DNA from: Candidatus Pacearchaeota archaeon
Lineage (GTDB): Archaea > Nanobdellota > Nanobdellia > Pacearchaeales > GW2011-AR1
Length of the DNA: 44,632 nt
Direction of reading: 5' to 3'
NCBI GenBank assembly: GCA_038874355.1
Contig: JAVZCO010000001.1
Span: 108,913-153,544, forward strand
Shown here: piece after piece, positions 1,445 through 30,644 of the stretch
How positions within the stretch are numbered: position 1 is the stretch's first letter
Layout: every line of letters begins with the position of its first letter
Translations under genes and position numbers: made by a program
The notes under the pieces: model-generated
What the model was told of the DNA's origin: nothing
Database searches by the model: none
What the model saw: the letters and a program-made list of their open reading frames with translations, nothing else

Positions 1445-2896
1445 ATGCTCGACGCACAGCTTAAATCGCAAATAAGAAAGTTATGGGATAGGTTTTGGTC
1501 AGGAGGATTAGTTAATCCAATAACTGCAATTGAACAAATGAGTTATCTTCTTTTTATGAAAAGACTTGAAGATGAAGATAATAAAAGAAAGCAAGAGGCG
1601 GATTTTGCTGGCCTAAAATATAAATCTATATTTGAAGGACATGAAGATTGTAAATGGAGCTATTGGAGCAACTTGCCTGCTGAAGAGATACTAGATCATG
1701 TAAGAGACAAAGTATTTCCGTTTATGAGAAACCTTGGAGATGGAGATTCTTTATATAAAGAGTATATGAAAAATGCAAACTTCTCAATACCGACTGCTTC
1801 TTTGCTTATAGAAGCTGTTAAAATAATTGATGACATGCACATCAAAGAAAGAAATAGAGACACACAAGGAGATATTTATGAGTATTTATTGAGCGAGCTA
1901 CAAATCTCTGGGAAAAACGGACAATTTAGAACACCAAGACATATAATTAAAATGATGATAGAACTAGCAAAACCAAAGTATGGCGAAACAATATTAGATC
2001 CTGCTTGTGGAACAGGAGGTTTTCTTGTTACAGCATATGAATATATTCTTGATAAAAACAAAAAAGAAGGAGTAAGCACATTAACAGCAAAACAAAAACA
2101 AATTCTAGACGAGGAATCAATTTATGGTTATGATATAGATGAAACAATGACAAGAATAGCTCTAATGAATTTAATGATGCACGGAATAAAAAAACCAAAT
2201 ATAAAAAGGTTGAATTCATTATCAAGAGCAGGAGATGAAGAAATACCAGAAAACAGATATGACTTAATTCTTGCTAATCCGCCATTTAAAGGAAGTATAA
2301 ATGAAGCAGAGATAAGTGATAGGTTTAGTGTTAAGACAAAAAAGACCGAGCTTTTATTCTTAGAATTAATGATTTTAGCACTTGCTCCTCAAGGAAGATG
2401 CGCGGTAATTGTTCCAGATGGAGTTTTGTTTGGAAATTCAAAAGCGCATAAGGCAATAAGAAAAATGATATTAGAAAAATGCAGATTAGATGCAGTTATC
2501 TCAATGCCTTCAGGAGTTTTCAAACCTTATGCAGGAGTTTCAACTGCTGTTTTATTCTTTACAAAAGGAGAACCAACAGAAAAAGTTTGGTTTTATGATA
2601 TGGAGAATGATGGTTTTAGTTTAGATGATAAAAGAGTAGAGATTGATAAAAATGATATTCCTGATATATTAGAAAGATTTGAAAAAAGAAAAGAAGAACC
2701 TAATGAAGACAGAAGAAAAAAGCATTTCTTTGTTCCAGTTGAAGAGATAAAAGCAAATGATTATGACTTAAGTATTTCTAAATATAGAGAAGTTGAATAT
2801 GAAGAAGTTAAATATGAAAAACCGGAGATCTTAAAGAAAAAAATTTTAGAGCTAGAAGAGGAAATTATTGCTGGGCTAAAAGAAATAAATCTCTAA
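1445..2896 (+). CDS. hsdM: Type I restriction-modification DNA methyltransferase HsdM (N6-adenine)
   Basis: HsdM transfers a methyl group from S-adenosylmethionine to adenine in the target set by HsdS, and is also needed for restriction by HsdR. The 483-residue length is normal for the family. An N-terminal helical HsdM_N domain covers about residues 5-135. The catalytic domain has the FRTPRHI segment (161-167), the AdoMet-binding motif DPACGTGGF (185-193) and the catalytic NPPF (278-281). The C-terminus is a Lys/Glu-rich helix, as is common for contacts with HsdS. The gene order hsdS - HEPN-like - hsdM is unusual; hsdM normally precedes hsdS. Confidence 0.95.
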   Translation: MLDAQLKSQIRKLWDRFWSGGLVNPITAIEQMSYLLFMKRLEDEDNKRKQEADFAGLKYKSIFEGHEDCKWSYWSNLPAEEILDHVRDKVFPFMRNLGDGDSLYKEYMKNANFSIPTASLLIEAVKIIDDMHIKERNRDTQGDIYEYLLSELQISGKNGQFRTPRHIIKMMIELAKPKYGETILDPACGTGGFLVTAYEYILDKNKKEGVSTLTAKQKQILDEESIYGYDIDETMTRIALMNLMMHGIKKPNIKRLNSLSRAGDEEIPENRYDLILANPPFKGSINEAEISDRFSVKTKKTELLFLELMILALAPQGRCAVIVPDGVLFGNSKAHKAIRKMILEKCRLDAVISMPSGVFKPYAGVSTAVLFFTKGEPTEKVWFYDMENDGFSLDDKRVEIDKNDIPDILERFEKRKEEPNEDRRKKHFFVPVEEIKANDYDLSISKYREVEYEEVKYEKPEILKKKILELEEEIIAGLKEINL

Positions 2897-2903
2897 AAGC
2901 GGA

Positions 2904-3110
2904 ATGACGGCAAAAGATGCGAAAGCAAAAGCTGAAGCATTGCAAAAATACATAAAAGAACAAAGCAGAAAGGGTAAAAAATTAATTGGTGGTATTTTGG
3001 CGCAAAAAAGAAAAGGTGATGAAATACTCTACTTAAATGACAAAGATATTTATGAGTTTAATCAAAATGATTTCTCAAAGTGGAAAGTTTTAGATTTAAA
3101 CGAGTTGTGA
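2904..3110 (+). CDS. Small hypothetical protein after hsdM
   Basis: This is a 68-residue protein of unknown function, seven bases after the hsdM stop. It has a basic, lysine-rich N-terminal helix (KDAKAKAEALQKYIKEQSRK), a short glycine-containing turn and an acidic C-terminal half with aromatic residues. There is no signal peptide or membrane segment. Position suggests it is the last gene of the RM operon. No function can be assigned. Confidence 0.55.
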   Translation: MTAKDAKAKAEALQKYIKEQSRKGKKLIGGILAQKRKGDEILYLNDKDIYEFNQNDFSKWKVLDLNEL

Positions 3111-11912: not shown

Positions 11913-12248
11913 ATGAAAAAAGAAATAATAATAGAAGTGAATGAAAATAATTTTAAAGAAAAAGTTATAAATAAAAGCAAAGAAATTCCAATAGTCGTTG
12001 ATTTTTGGGCTGATTGGTGTATGCCTTGTTTAATGTTATCCCCTATATTAGAATCTTTAGCAAAAAAATTTAATGGAAAATTTATTTTAGCAAAAGCTAA
12101 TATAGATGACACACCTTATATAGCAAAAAAATATAATATTACAACTATACCTTCAGTAAAAATGATAAAAAATGGCGAGATTACTGACGAATTTATAGGT
12201 CTAATTCCGGAAGAAGAAATAGAAAAATGGATAAATAAAAATTTATAA
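11913..12248 (+). CDS. trxA: Thioredoxin
   Basis: This 111-residue thioredoxin has the active site WADWCMPCLMLSP (the CxxC is CMPC rather than the common CGPC), the cis-proline loop TTIPSVKMIKNGE and a C-terminal helix. It reduces protein disulfides in the cytoplasm and is recharged by the reductase encoded 22 bases downstream. AATATAAAA lies about 28 bases before the ATG. The methionine between the cysteines may change its redox potential (inference). Confidence 0.95.
   Translation: MKKEIIIEVNENNFKEKVINKSKEIPIVVDFWADWCMPCLMLSPILESLAKKFNGKFILAKANIDDTPYIAKKYNITTIPSVKMIKNGEITDEFIGLIPEEEIEKWINKNL
12241..12248 (+). promoter_or_regulatory. TATA box of the thioredoxin reductase gene
   Basis: TTTATAAG overlaps the end of trxA and is centred about 26 bases before the next ATG at 12271, so trxB and the following gene can be transcribed without trxA. 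Confidence 0.5.
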
Positions 12249-12270
12249 GTATATTTTTTCTTATTTAAAC

Positions 12271-13176
12271 ATGGTAATTTATGACTTGATTATAATTGGT
12301 GCTGGTCCCGCTGGTTTAACAGCTTCTCTATATGCTGGAAGGTATAAATTAAAATGTTTACTTATATATTCTTTATTAGGCGGGACTATGACAGAAGCTT
12401 ACAACATAGAAAATTTTCCTTCTTATAAAAATATTTCTGGTATTGAATTAACAAAAAGAATTTATGAACAAATAAAAAATTTAAAAGTAGAGGAAAAATT
12501 AGAGGTTGTAAAAAAAATAGAAAAAGAGAAAAAATTTTTTTCTATTTTAACAGATAAAAATAGATATTATTCAAAAACAATAATAATAGCAACAGGAAGA
12601 GAAAAAGCAAAATTAAATTTAAAAAATGAAGATAAATTTTTAGGAAAGGGAATTCATTATTGCGCTAGTTGTGATGCTCCTTTTTATAAAAATAAAATTG
12701 TTGCTGTCGTAGGAGGGGGGAATTGCGCATTAAATTCATCTTTATTACTAAGCAAATATGCTAAAAAAGTTTATATAATATACAGAAAAAAAGATTTCAT
12801 TAGAGCGGATAAAATTTTAGTAGATAAAATAAAGAAAAATAAAAAAATTAAAATTTTATTCAATAGGAATATAGAAGAATTAATTGGAAAAGAAAAATTA
12901 GAACAAATAAGATTAGATAATAATAAAAAAATTAAAGTTGATGGTTTATTTATAGAAATAGGATATGTTCCTAATAAAGAAATATTTAAAAATTTGAAAA
13001 TAAAATTTGAAAATAATTATATCAAAGTAAATAATAAACAAGAAACAAATATTAAAGGTATTTTCGCAGCTGGTGATATAACTTCAAACAATTTAAAACA
13101 AATAATTACAGCATGTGGAGAGGGAGCAATTGCTGCTTTTTCTGCTTATAACTTTATAAAAGAAAAGGAAAAATAA
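12271..13176 (+). CDS. trxB: Thioredoxin reductase
   Basis: This flavoprotein passes electrons from a nicotinamide cofactor to thioredoxin. The FAD-binding GAGPAGLTASLYAGR is at the N-terminus, followed by the redox-active CASCDAPF (usual form CATCDGPF) and the second nucleotide-binding site VVGGGNCALNSSLLLSKYA. GIFAAGDI is near the C-terminus. The NADPH-type HRRxxxR pattern is replaced by YRKKDFIRA, so cofactor preference is uncertain. The 301 residues are normal. It lies just after trxA and 15 bases before the diadenylate cyclase gene. Confidence 0.95.
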   Translation: MVIYDLIIIGAGPAGLTASLYAGRYKLKCLLIYSLLGGTMTEAYNIENFPSYKNISGIELTKRIYEQIKNLKVEEKLEVVKKIEKEKKFFSILTDKNRYYSKTIIIATGREKAKLNLKNEDKFLGKGIHYCASCDAPFYKNKIVAVVGGGNCALNSSLLLSKYAKKVYIIYRKKDFIRADKILVDKIKKNKKIKILFNRNIEELIGKEKLEQIRLDNNKKIKVDGLFIEIGYVPNKEIFKNLKIKFENNYIKVNNKQETNIKGIFAAGDITSNNLKQIITACGEGAIAAFSAYNFIKEKEK

Positions 13177-13191
13177 AAGAAAAATAGAAAA

Positions 13192-13809
13192 ATGAAAGCA
13201 AAAAAAAGTGAAAATAAAAGAAAAAAAATAGAAGAAATTTTAATAAAAGTAGGAATAGAAATAGCAAGAAAAGGCGGAGGTGCTTTATTTATAATTAGTG
13301 ATAGCTGTAAATACAAAAGATTATTAAAACAAAAAATAAAACCATTTTCAATTTTTGAAAAAGGAGCGGAAAAGATATTAATGTCTATTGGAACAATAGA
13401 TGGAGCTGTAATAGTAAATTCAAAAGGGATGATAAAAGATTATGGAGCTTTTATTAAATCAAAAAAAATATTTAAAGGTTTTGGTACAAGACACATTGCT
13501 GCTTATAATGCTTCATTAAATAAAGATACAATTGCAATTCTTGTTTCAGAAGAAGAAAAAAAAGTTAAAATATTTAAGGAAGGAAAGATAATATTACAAT
13601 TTGACACTTTAGAAAAAAATATACAAAAAAACGTAAATGAAACTTTTAAGCTATTAGAAAGTTTAGGGTTTGGAACATTATCTTCTGTAAGTATATCTAC
13701 TTTAATCCCTGGTCTTGGAGTATCTATTTTTCCTGGAATAATTTTATTTGCAGCTCCTTATTACATATTCAGAAAAATACAAGAAAAAAGAAAAACAAAG
13801 AAATTTTAA
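13192..13809 (+). CDS. Predicted diadenylate cyclase (c-di-AMP synthase) with a C-terminal membrane segment
   Basis: The two signatures of the DAC domain are present in order: TIDGAVIVNSKG (DGA at 70-72) and GFGTRHIAAYNASLNKDTIA (Arg100-His101, followed by Ile instead of the third basic residue of RHR), then VSEEEKKVKIFKEG. The domain joins two ATP into cyclic di-AMP, a second messenger that in archaea has been tied to osmotic balance. Residues about 165-196 are hydrophobic (TLIPGLGVSIFPGIILFAAP) and may anchor it by a hairpin, leaving a basic tail. There is no N-terminal extra domain as in euryarchaeal DacZ. It has no TATA box of its own and is probably co-transcribed with trxB. Confidence 0.82.
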   Translation: MKAKKSENKRKKIEEILIKVGIEIARKGGGALFIISDSCKYKRLLKQKIKPFSIFEKGAEKILMSIGTIDGAVIVNSKGMIKDYGAFIKSKKIFKGFGTRHIAAYNASLNKDTIAILVSEEEKKVKIFKEGKIILQFDTLEKNIQKNVNETFKLLESLGFGTLSSVSISTLIPGLGVSIFPGIILFAAPYYIFRKIQEKRKTKKF

Positions 13810-13833
13810 ATATAAAAAAATAGTATAATATAT

Positions 13834-13908
13834 GCTCCCGTAGCTCAGTCTGGATAGAGCACCGCACTTCTAATGCGGGGGTCGAGGGTTCAAATCCTTC
13901 CGGGAGCA
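13834..13908 (+). tRNA. tRNA-Arg (TCT anticodon)
   Basis: Acceptor GCTCCCG/CGGGAGC, anticodon stem CCGCA/TGCGG with loop CTTCTAA (anticodon TCT), and T arm GAGGG-TTCAAAT-CCTTC. Discriminator A. It reads AGA/AGG, the main arginine codons in this AT-rich genome. Confidence 0.95.
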
Positions 13909-13979
13909 TTTTAGTAATATTTTAATAAAATATTTTATAAAATAGATAATTTCTTAAAATATAATTTATTATATTAAAT

Positions 13980-23993: not shown

Positions 23994-26900
23994 TTAAGAA
24001 AGTTCTTTCTCTATTTCTTTTAACTTTTCATACCTACTCCATACTTGCTCTACATATTTATCTTGTTCTGGGTATTTTGGATTACATTTCCAACCATTAT
24101 ATCCTCTTAAAGCAGCTTGCCATCCATAATATATCTTTGATCTATATTCCTCGCTGCATGCATTACTAAATTGTTTTCCATTTTTATATGCATCATACAT
24201 TTCCTTCAAAATTGCTGTTCCTATTTTTATATTTATTTCAGTATCTTTCAATTCTTCTTTAGATTTCAAATTAAATTTATCTTTCCATTTATTAAAACTA
24301 ATTTGCATTAAACCATAAGAAGAACCGATAGAAACATCTTTTTTACATTCGGATTCTTGTATTATTACTGCAAGTGTTAATAAAGGATCAATTCCATTTT
24401 CTTTTGAATATTTTAATATATTTTCAGAAATATCTTCACAATAATCAACACATTTACATTTTTTATTATCACCATCTATTCCATAGTTCTTTACATTTTC
24501 TATTATTTTTTTAATTCTTTCTTTTTCTTCATTAGATATTTCGTTTTCTTCTTCTGAAGAAGAAGTTTTTTTCTTATTAGAACAAAAATAATCCCTATAA
24601 ATTCCTGAATAATCAATAATTCTTAAACTATAAAAATATAATAGATTTTTATCTTTTATTTCTCCTTGGCTTAGTTTATATTTAAATATATAAATTATAC
24701 AAAAAGCTTTTTGGTATTCATCTTTTAAATTAGAGCATTGGTTATATAAGTAATAACTATTTTTTCCTTCAAAAGCACTTTTTAATTCAGAAGATAACAG
24801 TGATAATTGTGAATCTGGTCCTTTGTTAATTGTGTTTTTATAACCAGCAAAATGTGTATCATTTTTAATATATATTGCTTTATTTTTGTTGCTTTTTTCT
24901 AAATCTAATTGATAACCCATCTTAGATTCTGCTGAAACAATAGCAGCTAATAAAGCTTTAAAAGATTCTTCATCAAAACCTTCTGGAAGATTTTTCTTTG
25001 CATATTTATTAAAATATTCTTTATACTCTTCATATCTTTTTTTATATACAGAATTAAGTTCATAATTACTTTTACATCCTTCACTACATTTTAAACAAAA
25101 TTTTTTTTCTTTATTTTGTGTTGTAGAAGAAATTGCATAACCAACAATAACATTATTTGTAATATAATTATAATCTGGTTCTAATGGATAATAAAGAGGT
25201 TCTTCTTCTAAAAAGCATTTTTCTTGAATATATAGGTTATATACACTTTCTAAATCTTTTTTAATTAAATCTAAATTTTTTAATTCTTTTTCATAATCTT
25301 TTATTAAATTTAAATTTCCTATGATATCAAAATATCCTATTTGAACATCCTCTACAAAGAAATCTGTTCCTAAAAATTTTCTATCTAAATATAAGTCTCC
25401 AGCAGGATAATTAAAGTATAATCCAGTTTCTTTTCTTGATTTCAATATTTTTATTTTTTCACCATTATTCTTTTCATCTTCATAAGATAATTGATTATTG
25501 TCTAGGCTTGTTTGGCCATTCTGACTTTTGCCTTCTTTTATATCTTCTGCAATAACGCTAACTATTTTTCTTAAAGTATACTTTTTATATTCTTCTTTTA
25601 CTAAATTTTCATATATTTTATATGTATTATATAATAATTCTGCTTTTCTATTGTCTAAAGAAGATTTTTGCAAGAATTCTTTTAATTTTTGTAAATAATC
25701 ATTAGAAGGTTCTTTTGATTTATCTTTTTCTTTTAATTCTTTATAATTTTGTTCTTCATTAAAAACTATTCCTTCTTGTTGTTTTAATTTTTCAAAAACT
25801 TCCTTTTCATATTCTTGTAAGGTTTTTATTGTTTGATTTCTTAGTTCTATGTTTTGTATAGCGTTTTTTACAGATTCTGTGTCAAGCCAGCATTTTATGT
25901 TCTTACTTTTATCACACCAGCCTACAGCAATCCATCTTCCTTCTTTTGAAGCACTAGAATAAATATCTTTAGAAGGTTCTCCTGTAGAACAAACTCTTAT
26001 TATTCCTATATTTGAAATATCAGGATTAGTATAAGATGAAATTCCTTCTTGTAAATTTAAATTAGCTAAACTATAATAACTTGAAGTTCCATAAACACAT
26101 TCTTCTTCTGAATTAATCTCTTTATTTTTAACTTGTTGTTCTACATATTTATCTTTTAAATAATTTATTGTAAAATCTGTTGTCACTTGCTTAAAACCAC
26201 ATTTTTCTTGGTTATTTATTTTTACACATAATTCATCATATCCAGCTGGTCCTAAGAAATCTTTCGTCTCAGAAGCATATTCTCCTTGCTTTACGTATCC
26301 TGTTGTTACTAACATGGTTTCTTTTAAATTAAAGAATTGTGTTGATGCAGAAGTTGCCTTTAAGTAAATAGAATAATAAACTCCTGAATCTTTTCCTGCA
26401 TAAATATGATAATAAACTTTATAATGTGTTGTTTCTGTTGTTGTAACATCTGTATAAGGTATTTGATCTAAAGTAGCATAAAATTGTACAGGACTTGGTG
26501 GTTCTGCCAATTTATCAAAAACATCTGAAACAGAAGGATAATTAGCAGAAATAAAACTTTTGCATATCTCTGTTTGTATATTTTTTGTTGTTCTTTCTTT
26601 AAACGCTTGCATAACATTTATTCCATAATAATTAGTGAAATAATTAAAAGAATTTTCCATATTTTTCCATGCGTCATTTATGGTTAGATATTCTCCTCCA
26701 CCATAAGATGTTGATTTTCCTGCTAATAATCCTAAGAATTTAGGAAAACCATATCTTAAAAGAGGAACTAGTTGTCTCCATGTTAAATCACATAAATAAA
26801 TACTGTATATTTCATCACACATCCCTACCATTCTTCCTGTATTTAAATTTTCTTGTAAACAATCCCTATGTGCTTTTAATAAAGAAGAATATGCTTGTAA

Positions 26901-29900
26901 TCCTGCATTAACTCCTGTCAAACATACAGGAACTAAAACCTTTCCTTCAGAAGGAGAACCAAAATTAGGTAAACACAAAACTAAACTTCCTATTATTCCT
27001 TCTTGGATAACATTTTGTGTTGGCCATGTTCCACCTAAATTACATCTTGAAGCAGGACACATAACAGGATCACAGACATTAAATAATATAGCACAATCTT
27101 CAACAGACATATAATCATAGCAGTTCCCATTTGGAATATTTACAGCTCTTTCAAAAACAAAATAATTTCCATCAATGATTATACCTTTTTCTCCATTTAG
27201 ATAAGCTTTTGATACTTTTTCTACTGTATTTATTCCTTTTATTATTAATTGTTTTGCTTCATTTTGACTTAATGCACATGGTAATTGATCTAATGGCTGA
27301 TTTGAGTTCATGTCTATTCTCGTACATATATCATCACCACCAGATTCAAATTCTTCTTTTCCATTAGATCCAACATTACATAAATAAAATGTTGATAACA
27401 TTCCTGAACTTGAATAAGGTTTAGAAGAAGTTGCTCCTAAAAAAGATAAAGAAGGTTTTGTTGCAATATACCAACCTTGCTTTAAATCAAAAGGAACTAA
27501 TTTAGGCATTCCTTTAAATGGCTCTGTATCATAAACAGCAATTTTTTTGTTTATTATTTGATAAGTATTTTTACACTCTCCTGAAGAAACAAAAATTATA
27601 TCTTTTATATCATTATACTTTAATTTTTCACAACTTGTATTTATTGAAGATAATTCGCCATTATTAAATTCATTTGAATTAATAATATATTCGCTACTTC
27701 CTTCACCTAGCAATCTCACAGGAACAGCATATAAACAATTATTTTTTACAATTGTTACATATTTACTTTCATTTTTTTCTATTATCTTTGCATTAATTTT
27801 TCTAGCATTATCAGACAAAAATATAGGTATTGCTCCTTTATAACCAACGTTTTCAAATTCTTTTGAAATACTATTTTCTCTTTCATCATTTTCTTTTAAT
27901 TTTTTTATTTGCTCAACCAAAGAATTAATTTTATTCTCTTCTAAAGGAATACTAGCATTTTTTGTTTTTGAATAAAAAATAATTTCTCTCATATCATAAA
28001 CTGTTAAATATCCTTTTTCTATTAAATCATTAATAGTATTTATTGAATTAAAGGTTTGATTTAGGTTATTATCATTTTTTATTTCTTGATAGAAATATTG
28101 TGTTAAATTTTTAGCAATTTCTTTTTGGGTATTTCCTGAAGATTGTGCTGATTCTATCTTTTGATTTATTTCATTTATTATTTCTGTAACTTTTTCAACA
28201 TCTTTATTTATTTTATCTTTATTTTTATAAAAACACTCATCTAAACTTTTGTGTTCTCCTTTTACAACTAATTCTGCACATCTTTCATTCCAACCTCCCT
28301 TTGAAGTCATAACATATGTTCTTGCTGTTGCTTTTCCTCCTATGTTTGCAAACATATTTTTTATGTTTAATATAGTAGCTGTAGCAATACAAGTCTTTGT
28401 CCATGTTTTAACAACATTGTTTAAGTTATTAGAAATTTTTTCAACTTGCTCTAATGTTTTATTTATATTTTCTATTCTTTCTTTTGTTTTTTCTGGTGTT
28501 AATTTTATTGCTCTTTTTTCTATTCCTATAGAAACAGCAAAATTGGTTTCGGTTCTTCCAAAATTTGTTTTAGGAATTAATTTTATTTTTGCTAGATAAT
28601 TTGCATTTATATCAACTAATTTTATTTTTATATTTCCTTCTTGTATAAGTTTTGGATTTTGTTCATTTAAATTTACTTTTATTTCTTTTTCTATCCACTC
28701 ATTTTCTTTCGTTTTGTATTTATAAGAAATTTTTGCAGATTCTTTTTCTATACTTCCTAATATAATAGAAATATTTTCATCCTGATAAATAATTTCTCCT
28801 AATCCAACTAACCCGATATCTGTATATGATTTTTTTATTCTTCCTTCATTATCATAAATATCAAATTTTGCGCTTACTTCTTCTTTATTAGGATATTTTA
28901 TGTTTTTCAATGTTATAAGATGCGTTTCTCCTTGGTGTTCAAAAAATAAACTTGATGAAGAAAAATCTAATAAAGAAGATTTCGCTATTTCATCTTGGAC
29001 TTTATTTACCAATTTAGAATCTGAATATTGATCTATTAATTTATTCAATAATTCTATTTGTGTTTTTTGCTTTCCAATAATTTTCGCTGTTTCTGCTAAT
29101 TCATATAAAGCTAGTGCCCCATAATATTCTCCTGCATATTCTCCTGCATCTATTTTTTCCTTTCCATAATCCTTAACGATTATGTCAACATAATCCTTTG
29201 CTTTTGAAAAATAATCATTAATATTATTTGTATTTTCTTCATAATCTGCTTTTTCTATTATGACTGGTTCATTAAAGGTATAACTTTCTTCTGTTTTTGA
29301 TTTTTCTATTATAAGGATATTATTCTGTTGAATTCCTAATTCTGTTGCTGTATCTTTTTTTATTGCTTCTTTAAATTTTTCCCATTCTAACTTTGTTTTT
29401 GAATTTATTCCTTTTTTTATTGATTCGAGTTTTTCTGTTTTTATTTTTCCATCTTTTATATTAATATCAGAAACATTTTTTGCTATAACTATAAATTCTT
29501 TTTGTTGGTTATTTTCTTTTTTTATTCCATAATATAATAGAAAATCCTTTTCTTTTAAATTCTGGCCAATTTTCTTTTCTTCATTATTTATTTTAACATA
29601 ATTTGAAAATCCTATAGATAAAAAATAATTTTTTCCTGCACATCTTAATTCTATTTGATTTAAGTTTCTATCAATTTTATTAATTGTACATTCTCCTACT
29701 TTTTCATTTTCATATACCCATGTTTCAATACCATCATATTCTATTAGAGCCCTTTCTTTTGGTAATTCCTGGTCGATATATTTTATAATTAATCCTGCTT
29801 TACAATAAAAACCTGGAATATATATTATAGAAGATTCCTTTCCTTTATCTAAAGTTATTTTTTTATAGACATTGCTTTTATCAGAATATATAGAAACCAT

Positions 29901-30644
29901 TGCTTTATTTTCATTAATATCTTCCAATCTTAAATAACCCTTTCCCTTCCAAAAACCATAATTAGTATATTCTGAATTCCATTCTTCATTTTCTAATAAA
30001 GGTAAATAATAAGTGTTATCTTTTCCTATACCTAAAGCATTTTCTACATCATATTCTATTATTGCTGTTAAACTAGCATTAACTTCATTTGGCATATCCT
30101 TTTCTGATTTCTGTTTTTTTAAGTTAATAACCACATATCCTAAATCTGTAAAAATTGGATTAGTTATTGTATTAGTAGTAGCACCTATAGAGGATTTAGA
30201 AGGAAAATAACTTGCTCCAGCTATTATATTACTTTGATTATTAACTTTTATTCTTACACTTTTTATCTTATCTGTCTTTATTAAAGGATTTATTTTTGTT
30301 GCAACAATCTTACAAAAAACAGGAACATTTTGCTCTTCTAATAAATCACTTCTCACAACAGAAGGCATGCAACTTCCAGGAACAACATTAACAATAAAAT
30401 CTTGGGTAGCTTCACATTTTTCTGTATCTCCATAATAAGGCCAAACTTCTTTGTAATCAAAACCGATTTTAGAATAATAATTTATTAAATCTGGTTGAGA
30501 AAATTCTACTTGATTTGGATTAGAAAGAGAATATGCTTTTATTAAGTCTATATTTAAAAAAACGAATAGAAGTACAAATAAATAAATTAATATCTTATTT
30601 TCTGTATTCTTTCTTTCTCTTTCTTTATCATAATTACATTTCAT
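23994..30644 (-). CDS. Giant exported protein with C-terminal lysozyme/transglycosylase-like domains
   Basis: This 2216-residue protein starts with a basic stretch and a hydrophobic signal or anchor (ILIYLFVLLFVFLNIDLIKA, about 22-42). The long body alternates beta-rich, Glu/Lys-rich helical and cysteine-rich parts (for example DVCDPVMCPASRCN-type clusters in the middle), suggesting disulfides outside the cell. The C-terminal 130 residues form an SLT-like domain: NGIDPLLTLAVIIQESECKK with the candidate catalytic Glu near 2097, GSSYGLMQISFNKW, and LRGYNGW. A second lysozyme-like region precedes it (about 1871-2020, AAIVSAESKMGYQ). Archaea lack murein, so the substrate is unknown: pseudomurein, a surface glycan or a bacterial neighbour's wall. 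It overlaps the previous gene by ATGA. Confidence 0.8.
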   Translation of the reverse strand: MKCNYDKERERKNTENKILIYLFVLLFVFLNIDLIKAYSLSNPNQVEFSQPDLINYYSKIGFDYKEVWPYYGDTEKCEATQDFIVNVVPGSCMPSVVRSDLLEEQNVPVFCKIVATKINPLIKTDKIKSVRIKVNNQSNIIAGASYFPSKSSIGATTNTITNPIFTDLGYVVINLKKQKSEKDMPNEVNASLTAIIEYDVENALGIGKDNTYYLPLLENEEWNSEYTNYGFWKGKGYLRLEDINENKAMVSIYSDKSNVYKKITLDKGKESSIIYIPGFYCKAGLIIKYIDQELPKERALIEYDGIETWVYENEKVGECTINKIDRNLNQIELRCAGKNYFLSIGFSNYVKINNEEKKIGQNLKEKDFLLYYGIKKENNQQKEFIVIAKNVSDINIKDGKIKTEKLESIKKGINSKTKLEWEKFKEAIKKDTATELGIQQNNILIIEKSKTEESYTFNEPVIIEKADYEENTNNINDYFSKAKDYVDIIVKDYGKEKIDAGEYAGEYYGALALYELAETAKIIGKQKTQIELLNKLIDQYSDSKLVNKVQDEIAKSSLLDFSSSSLFFEHQGETHLITLKNIKYPNKEEVSAKFDIYDNEGRIKKSYTDIGLVGLGEIIYQDENISIILGSIEKESAKISYKYKTKENEWIEKEIKVNLNEQNPKLIQEGNIKIKLVDINANYLAKIKLIPKTNFGRTETNFAVSIGIEKRAIKLTPEKTKERIENINKTLEQVEKISNNLNNVVKTWTKTCIATATILNIKNMFANIGGKATARTYVMTSKGGWNERCAELVVKGEHKSLDECFYKNKDKINKDVEKVTEIINEINQKIESAQSSGNTQKEIAKNLTQYFYQEIKNDNNLNQTFNSINTINDLIEKGYLTVYDMREIIFYSKTKNASIPLEENKINSLVEQIKKLKENDERENSISKEFENVGYKGAIPIFLSDNARKINAKIIEKNESKYVTIVKNNCLYAVPVRLLGEGSSEYIINSNEFNNGELSSINTSCEKLKYNDIKDIIFVSSGECKNTYQIINKKIAVYDTEPFKGMPKLVPFDLKQGWYIATKPSLSFLGATSSKPYSSSGMLSTFYLCNVGSNGKEEFESGGDDICTRIDMNSNQPLDQLPCALSQNEAKQLIIKGINTVEKVSKAYLNGEKGIIIDGNYFVFERAVNIPNGNCYDYMSVEDCAILFNVCDPVMCPASRCNLGGTWPTQNVIQEGIIGSLVLCLPNFGSPSEGKVLVPVCLTGVNAGLQAYSSLLKAHRDCLQENLNTGRMVGMCDEIYSIYLCDLTWRQLVPLLRYGFPKFLGLLAGKSTSYGGGEYLTINDAWKNMENSFNYFTNYYGINVMQAFKERTTKNIQTEICKSFISANYPSVSDVFDKLAEPPSPVQFYATLDQIPYTDVTTTETTHYKVYYHIYAGKDSGVYYSIYLKATSASTQFFNLKETMLVTTGYVKQGEYASETKDFLGPAGYDELCVKINNQEKCGFKQVTTDFTINYLKDKYVEQQVKNKEINSEEECVYGTSSYYSLANLNLQEGISSYTNPDISNIGIIRVCSTGEPSKDIYSSASKEGRWIAVGWCDKSKNIKCWLDTESVKNAIQNIELRNQTIKTLQEYEKEVFEKLKQQEGIVFNEEQNYKELKEKDKSKEPSNDYLQKLKEFLQKSSLDNRKAELLYNTYKIYENLVKEEYKKYTLRKIVSVIAEDIKEGKSQNGQTSLDNNQLSYEDEKNNGEKIKILKSRKETGLYFNYPAGDLYLDRKFLGTDFFVEDVQIGYFDIIGNLNLIKDYEKELKNLDLIKKDLESVYNLYIQEKCFLEEEPLYYPLEPDYNYITNNVIVGYAISSTTQNKEKKFCLKCSEGCKSNYELNSVYKKRYEEYKEYFNKYAKKNLPEGFDEESFKALLAAIVSAESKMGYQLDLEKSNKNKAIYIKNDTHFAGYKNTINKGPDSQLSLLSSELKSAFEGKNSYYLYNQCSNLKDEYQKAFCIIYIFKYKLSQGEIKDKNLLYFYSLRIIDYSGIYRDYFCSNKKKTSSSEEENEISNEEKERIKKIIENVKNYGIDGDNKKCKCVDYCEDISENILKYSKENGIDPLLTLAVIIQESECKKDVSIGSSYGLMQISFNKWKDKFNLKSKEELKDTEINIKIGTAILKEMYDAYKNGKQFSNACSEEYRSKIYYGWQAALRGYNGWKCNPKYPEQDKYVEQVWSRYEKLKEIEKELS

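What the first reader, a model, noticed from the sequence alone, without database searches (positions are those of the whole stretch)
13192..13809. Predicted c-di-AMP synthase with a C-terminal membrane hairpin, in a thioredoxin operon
The DGA and GTRH motifs mark a DAC domain, but the third basic residue of RHR is isoleucine, the N-terminal extra domain of DacZ is absent, and a hydrophobic hairpin is appended. The gene follows trxB by 15 bases without a promoter. It suggests second-messenger signalling in a minimal archaeon, perhaps linked to redox or membrane state.
Basis: partly seen in the sequence, partly recalled or inferred. Interest (0 to 1): 0.6.

Follow-up and report, generated by a model that had tools for sequence, protein, structure and literature searches.

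The report
Archaeal membrane-tailed c-di-AMP cyclase gene
A tiny archaeon carries a gene for a probable c-di-AMP-making enzyme that ends in a greasy membrane tail instead of starting with one, a design shared by many related archaea and apparently used beside a second, DNA-linked cyclase.

Summary
Window 13192-13809 encodes a 205-residue diadenylate cyclase (DAC) domain protein (PF02457, 61.2 bits against a cut-off of 27) with DGA, GTRH and SEE motifs, no N-terminal domain, and a C-terminal stretch of 37 uncharged residues. It lies 15 bases after trxB.

The context changes the reading. (1) It belongs to a conserved archaeal family with the same layout, mainly Pacearchaeota and other Nanoarchaeota, with weaker relatives in Micrarchaeota and Methanoperedenaceae. 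(2) The odd third RHR residue is a family trait: serine, alanine or, here alone, isoleucine, never arginine, in 66 of 66 distinct relatives. (3) The trxB link is not conserved: a trxB homologue lies near the gene in 1 of 60 relatives and is adjacent in none. (4) The genome has a second cyclase, a bacterial-type DisA, three bases upstream of a DHH-DHHA1 gene; that pairing recurs in 24 of 30 related DisA loci. (5) TrkA_C, Usp, TrkH, MscS and the c-di-AMP riboswitch give no hit in this genome; only stand-alone CBS proteins remain as receptor candidates.

Most likely it is a membrane-anchored c-di-AMP synthase working like bacterial CdaA with the anchor at the other end. Activity is unproven, and neither structure model resolves the tail.

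The parts
13192..13809 (+). Gene for a 205-aa DAC protein with a C-terminal hydrophobic tail
   Evidence: PF02457 61.2 bits, cut-off 27; full-length relatives
13399..13407 (+). DGA motif, residues 70-72 (D70 and G71 invariant in 58 relatives)
13483..13497 (+). GTRH-I motif, residues 98-102; the RHR motif with its third arginine replaced by isoleucine
13546..13554 (+). SEE motif, residues 119-121 (S119 invariant in 58 relatives)
13660..13770 (+). 37 uncharged residues (157-193), the proposed membrane hairpin, followed by a basic C terminus
   Evidence: low confidence in the structure models at 158-184
12271..13176 (+). trxB, thioredoxin reductase (TIGR01292 332.9 bits, cut-off 343.45), 15 bases upstream; local neighbour, not a conserved partner
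11913..12248 (+). trxA, thioredoxin (TIGR01068 103.2 bits, cut-off 96.8); a T-rich spacer separates it from trxB
13833..13909 (+). tRNA-Arg (tct), 23 bases after the DAC stop codon

Best explanation
The gene encodes a membrane-anchored diadenylate cyclase. The N-terminal DAC domain sits in the cytoplasm and joins two ATP into c-di-AMP when two domains meet face to face. The C-terminal hydrophobic hairpin, with the basic end inside, holds it at the membrane and probably sets its oligomeric state or senses membrane or osmotic state. It works like bacterial CdaA or CdaM with the anchor at the other end of the protein. A second cyclase, DisA, probably made together with a DHH-DHHA1 phosphoesterase, supplies and removes c-di-AMP elsewhere in the cell. 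Shown by computation: the domain, the conserved motifs, the conserved tail, the second cyclase and its neighbour. Inferred: activity, membrane insertion, topology, the sensing role and the DHH protein's substrate.
For: PF02457 match. All 21 solved-structure sequences matched at over 20 bits are DAC proteins (CdaA, CdaM/DacM, DisA, or deposited under general names), and the 50 fold matches shown are DAC structures. Invariant columns of 58 relatives are few and include D70, G71, G98, T99, R100, H101 and S119. All 66 distinct relatives have their hydropathy peak, over 1.6, in the last 35% of the protein; the uncharged run has median 37 residues against 8 in the DAC part; net charge after it is positive in 65 of 66. 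In 12 of 12 class-level relatives the run is 29-32 residues. In 6 of 54 carrier genomes it is the only DAC found, though those genomes are 74-87% complete.
Against: The third RHR arginine is missing throughout the family. Changing all three RHR residues to alanine kills M. tuberculosis DacA and M. bovis CdaM (PMC3328451, PMC13022847, passages), but that does not test the third residue alone. The tail is not confidently modelled. No receptor of the kinds tested except CBS domains was found.
Confidence: 0.72

Rival explanations
1. The DAC domain binds ATP or c-di-AMP but no longer makes it; the protein is a membrane receptor or channel-like effector whose hairpins assemble when the domains dimerise, reading the c-di-AMP made by DisA.
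For: Third RHR arginine absent in 66 of 66; glycine- and proline-rich tail; another DAC match present in 48 of 54 carrier genomes; known receptor families tested mostly absent.
Against: The other catalytic motifs are invariant or nearly so. The third position is also variable in CdaZ-like archaeal proteins: R 9, L 3, N 1, S 1, T 1, no motif 1, of 16. In 6 of 54 carriers no other DAC was found.
Confidence: 0.12
2. It is a redox-linked cyclase that works with thioredoxin reductase.
For: 15-base gap to trxB, same strand. A few relatives have redox or Fe-S neighbours: Pyr_redox_2 in 1, DUF1858 in 3 and NifU_N in 2 of 47 close co-directional neighbours.
Against: A trxB homologue at high similarity lies within the fetched flanks in 1 of 60 relatives, about 2.2 kb away, and is adjacent in none. 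Neighbours are otherwise ordinary and varied. The protein has one cysteine (C39), not in a conserved column.
Confidence: 0.06
3. A soluble cyclase whose hydrophobic tail packs into its own oligomer and does not enter the membrane.
For: The tail is rich in Gly, Pro, Ser and Thr, and AlphaFold does not build a clear two-helix hairpin in either model.
Against: Runs of 19 to 46 uncharged residues (median 37) followed by a basic end in 65 of 66 relatives are a usual membrane signature.
Confidence: 0.1

Closest known systems
CdaA (DacA), bacterial membrane diadenylate cyclase
   Same: DAC domain, membrane anchoring, no other domain; closest solved structures by profile and fold
   Different: The CdaA anchor is N-terminal (PMC8573169, abstract, passages); here it is C-terminal. 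TIGR00159 gives 33.7 bits against a cut-off of 188.8; GTRHR in CdaA against GTRHI here
DacZ / CdaZ, archaeal diadenylate cyclase
   Same: Best NCBIfam match, DAC part only, 41 bits; archaeal
   Different: Cut-off is 430 bits; lacks the N-terminal PK_C-like domain described in PMC6741144 (passages); CdaZ-like proteins from related archaea have no C-terminal tail
CdaM, mycoplasma diadenylate cyclase
   Same: Small membrane DAC (32.6 bits)
   Different: The M. [quoted passage not shown] that its anchor is N-terminal is recalled; cut-off 225 not met
DisA, DNA-scanning diadenylate cyclase
   Same: DAC domain; the genome carries a true DisA elsewhere (346.9 bits, cut-off 201)
   Different: No DisA linker or HhH domain; separate branch of the DAC tree, DisA group 100/100

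Membership tests
DAC domain (PF02457) | Score above Pfam's gathering cut-off | tested here: met
   61.2 bits against 27
DAC domain (PF02457) | DGA and GTRH motifs | tested here: met
   Residues 70-72 and 98-101
DAC domain (PF02457) | Complete RHR motif | tested here: not met
   RHI; the third residue is never R in 66 distinct relatives; also variable in CdaZ-like proteins, so it does not define all DACs
DAC domain (PF02457) | DAC fold | tested here: met
   Foldseek E 5.3e-09 to CdaA, TM by query 0.50 with the tail included
DAC domain (PF02457) | c-di-AMP synthesis | not testable with these tools
   Needs an enzyme assay
DacZ/CdaZ | NCBIfam DacZ model cut-off (430 bits) | tested here: not met
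   41 bits over the DAC part
DacZ/CdaZ | N-terminal PK_C-like domain | tested here: not met
   Only 23 residues precede the DAC match
CdaA | TIGR00159 cut-off (188.8 bits) | tested here: not met
   33.7 bits
CdaA | N-terminal transmembrane region | tested here: not met
   Hydropathy peak is C-terminal in 66 of 66
CdaM | NF038327 cut-off (225 bits) | tested here: not met
   32.6 bits
CdaS | NF038328 cut-off (225 bits) | tested here: not met
   25.7 bits
DisA | DisA linker and HhH domain | tested here: not met
   Only DAC found in Pfam; separate branch

The most novel reading that the evidence does not exclude
This is an unnamed archaeal class of diadenylate cyclase, anchored by a C-terminal hairpin, found across Pacearchaeota, other Nanoarchaeota, Micrarchaeota and Methanoperedenaceae. 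It works beside a DisA-DHH operon in 0.6-Mb archaea that lack the common receptors, so its c-di-AMP must act through receptors not yet known, perhaps stand-alone CBS proteins.
Probability: 0.4. Interest if true: 0.6.

Novelty: new variant of a known kind. Interest (0 to 1): 0.42.

Why it matters
The archaeal c-di-AMP work seen here concerns Haloferax DacZ and Methanocaldococcus CdaZ (PMC6741144, passages). A conserved membrane-tailed cyclase together with a DisA-DHH pair in archaea of about 0.6 Mb suggests that c-di-AMP signalling is kept under strong genome reduction. It opens a search for the receptor, since TrkA_C, Usp, TrkH, MscS and the c-di-AMP riboswitch gave no hit in this genome.

Tried and rejected
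Rejected: that isoleucine marks a decayed enzyme (the third position is never arginine in 66 relatives). Rejected: a conserved thioredoxin operon. Rejected: a shortened DisA paralogue (separate branches). Rejected: a known defence or phage protein (PADLOC 0 families for 3 of 3 proteins; PHROGs only weak matches, best E 0.0083). A weak NCBIfam hit to anti-phage DS2_3 (17.4 bits, cut-off 630) reflects the shared DAC domain; PMC13092281 (passage) describes a DAC in system DS-2.

Led nowhere: the single-protein scan of genome contigs found no relatives; the promoter scan is a bacterial sigma-70 pattern and does not fit an archaeon; the second structure model left the tail unresolved too. The Galperin 2023 survey of DAC architectures is not held (I saw only its citation), so I cannot say whether it lists this architecture. 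No held paper combined c-di-AMP with Pacearchaeota; diadenylate with Nanoarchaeota gave 1 paper, which I did not open; c-di-AMP with DPANN gave 3 and DisA with Woesearchaeota 2. Of these I read passages of PMC8646023 and PMC10086821 only, and those passages do not describe this protein.

Limits: my gene calls in relatives are ORF-based, with ATG starts except at contig ends. 'CdaZ-like' is my label: 3 of 16 were scored against the DacZ model; the rest are named by resemblance. For the tree I chose 45 rows from those in hand (DisA rows limited to nine with a recognisable motif, plus one reference); its CdaA row has a very long branch. Hairpin proteins need two changes on that tree; a single origin appears in 8% of bootstrap trees and is neither shown nor ruled out. 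The 48-of-54 count was made by eye from the tables.

Full report
What is there. The ORF at 13192-13809 (+) encodes 205 residues. Pfam finds one domain, DAC, at 61.2 bits (cut-off 27) over residues 24-133. The catalytic motifs are DGA (70-72), GTRH (98-101) and SEE (119-121); residue 102, arginine in the bacterial RHR motif, is isoleucine. Residues 157-193 hold no D, E, K, R, H, Q or N, and a basic end follows. The gene follows trxB by 15 bases and precedes a tRNA-Arg by 23. Every stated feature is present, except that absence of a promoter cannot be shown: TTTATAAA lies at 13153-13160, but the pattern class TTTAWAWA occurs 157 times in the window against 188 expected.

Family. The same layout recurs. 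A search with the protein found relatives over 80 bits, aligned over most of their length, in 54 of 180 genomes of the order, the window's own included (61 had any match at E 1e-5, the other 7 being weak hits to other DAC proteins). A profile search of 371 genomes of the phylum had 61 with a match at 1e-10; 37 of these matches, all over 90 bits, run through the tail, 12 of them outside the order. In named genomes the profile found 60 loci, titled Pacearchaeota, Nanoarchaeota, Woesearchaeota or uncultured archaea, one each Diapherotrites, Aenigmarchaeum and Micrarchaeota, and two Methanoperedenaceae at 26-30% identity; titles of such assemblies can be wrong. Among 66 distinct proteins the third RHR position was S in 48, A in 17 and I in 1 (ours); the motif before it was GTRH in 61 and GTKH in 5; DGA was found in 63 by a simple pattern, the other 3 reading DGC, EGN or none. 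In an alignment of 58, the invariant columns are G30, D70, G71, G79, Y84, G98, T99, R100, H101, A103 and S119. Keeping the active-site motifs while the rest drifts to 25% identity argues for an active enzyme.

Third arginine. Mutants in the literature change all three RHR residues at once (M. tuberculosis DacA, PMC3328451; M. bovis CdaM, PMC13022847; passages read), so they do not show that the third is needed. Archaeal CdaZ-like proteins vary there too: R 9, L 3, N 1, S 1, T 1, no motif 1, of 16. DisA proteins of these archaea mostly have K: 27 of 33 distinct, with R in 2, Q in 1 (the window's genome) and 3 without a recognised motif.

Tail. All 66 distinct relatives peak in hydropathy (window 19, over 1.6) in the last 35% of the protein; the longest uncharged run has median 37 (19-46) against median 8 and maximum 11 in the DAC part; charge after it is positive in 65 of 66. 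The 12 class-level relatives have runs of 29-32; 16 CdaZ-like proteins have none. Near-invariant G159, G161, G167, P173, G176, P181, G182, F186, G187 and Y190 suggest two segments with a Pro-Gly turn. AlphaFold gave a confident DAC domain (pLDDT mostly in the 90s) but under 50 at 158-184 and one C-terminal helix, 183-203; a second model on a relative was similar. Two helices are thus inferred, not shown.

Structure and tree. Fold search returns DAC structures, best CdaA at E 5.3e-09; profile search of PDB sequences gives CdaA at 1.9e-10 and DisA at 2.6e-05. In a 45-row tree the window protein sits in a Pacearchaeal hairpin clade (99/94) and DisA forms its own branch (100/100); hairpin proteins as a whole are not shown to be one clade.

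The rest of the genome. The assembly is 593 kb, 95.8% complete. It has a second DAC protein, 377 aa, with DAC and DisA-linker domains, 346.9 bits to the DisA model (cut-off 201), and 202 bits to T. maritima DisA. Three bases after it comes a DHH-DHHA1 protein, the domain set of known c-di-AMP and pApA phosphodiesterases (recalled); its closest solved chain is weak (7bhi, E 0.0057). Among the 30 best DAC loci of relatives, all DisA-type, 24 have the DHH gene within 1.5 kb, and one of the six misses is cut short. Of 54 genomes with the window-type gene, 48 have a second DAC match and 6 do not (counted by eye). PF02080 TrkA_C, PF00582 Usp, PF02386 TrkH, PF00924 MscS and RF00379 gave 0 hits here while controls rang (RF00379 rang in 2 of 14 controls, the others in 11 to 14). 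CBS domains gave 6 hits in 3 places, one an open frame of 126 aa.

Neighbours. In 60 relatives, a trxB homologue of high similarity was found in L071 only, about 2.2 kb upstream; L065 has a weaker one (30% over 140 aa) 90 bases upstream. Of 58 with an upstream gene, 34 are co-directional, 25 within 100 bases. Among 47 close co-directional neighbours no Pfam family occurs more than three times: DUF1858 3, then NifU_N, MFS_1, dUTPase, VTT_dom and DCD 2 each. So the gene moves between contexts and the thioredoxin link is local.

Judgement. Most likely a membrane-anchored c-di-AMP synthase, working like CdaA with the anchor at the other end. It is a member of the DAC domain family, not of CdaA, CdaM, CdaS, DacZ or DisA by their models. 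The architecture may already be listed in Galperin 2023, which I could not read. Interest is moderate: a conserved, unassayed variant, plus a DisA-DHH operon in tiny archaea with no known receptor found.

Noticed in passing
L125:6187-7320 (-) and L125:5122-6183 (-), i.e. G000:C1 90186-91319 and 89121-90182: Bacterial-type DisA three bases upstream of a DHH-DHHA1 gene; the pair recurs in 24 of 30 related DisA loci.
   Followed up: partly
L001:865-1998 (-), DisA motif GSRHQAA: The window genome's DisA has Q at the third RHR position where 27 of 33 distinct DisA proteins in hand have K.
   Followed up: no
window 12249-12270: T-rich spacer (a run of six T) between trxA and trxB; could be an archaeal terminator, which would split trxA from trxB and the DAC gene.
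   Followed up: no
L098:1192-2292 (-) and 2420-3010 (+): A second DAC gene of DisA length and the hairpin-type gene lie side by side and divergent in one archaeon.
   Followed up: no
G500 and G501 (loci L156, L157, L159, L160, L161): Methanoperedenaceae assemblies carry both CdaZ-like and tailed DAC genes.
   Followed up: partly
window 23994-30644 (-): A 2216-aa ORF whose C-terminal part reads like a lytic transglycosylase (my reading, no search done).
   Followed up: no
G000:C1:315432-315767, C1:422695-423048, C4:185-541: Three small proteins with paired CBS domains, possible nucleotide receptors.
   Followed up: no
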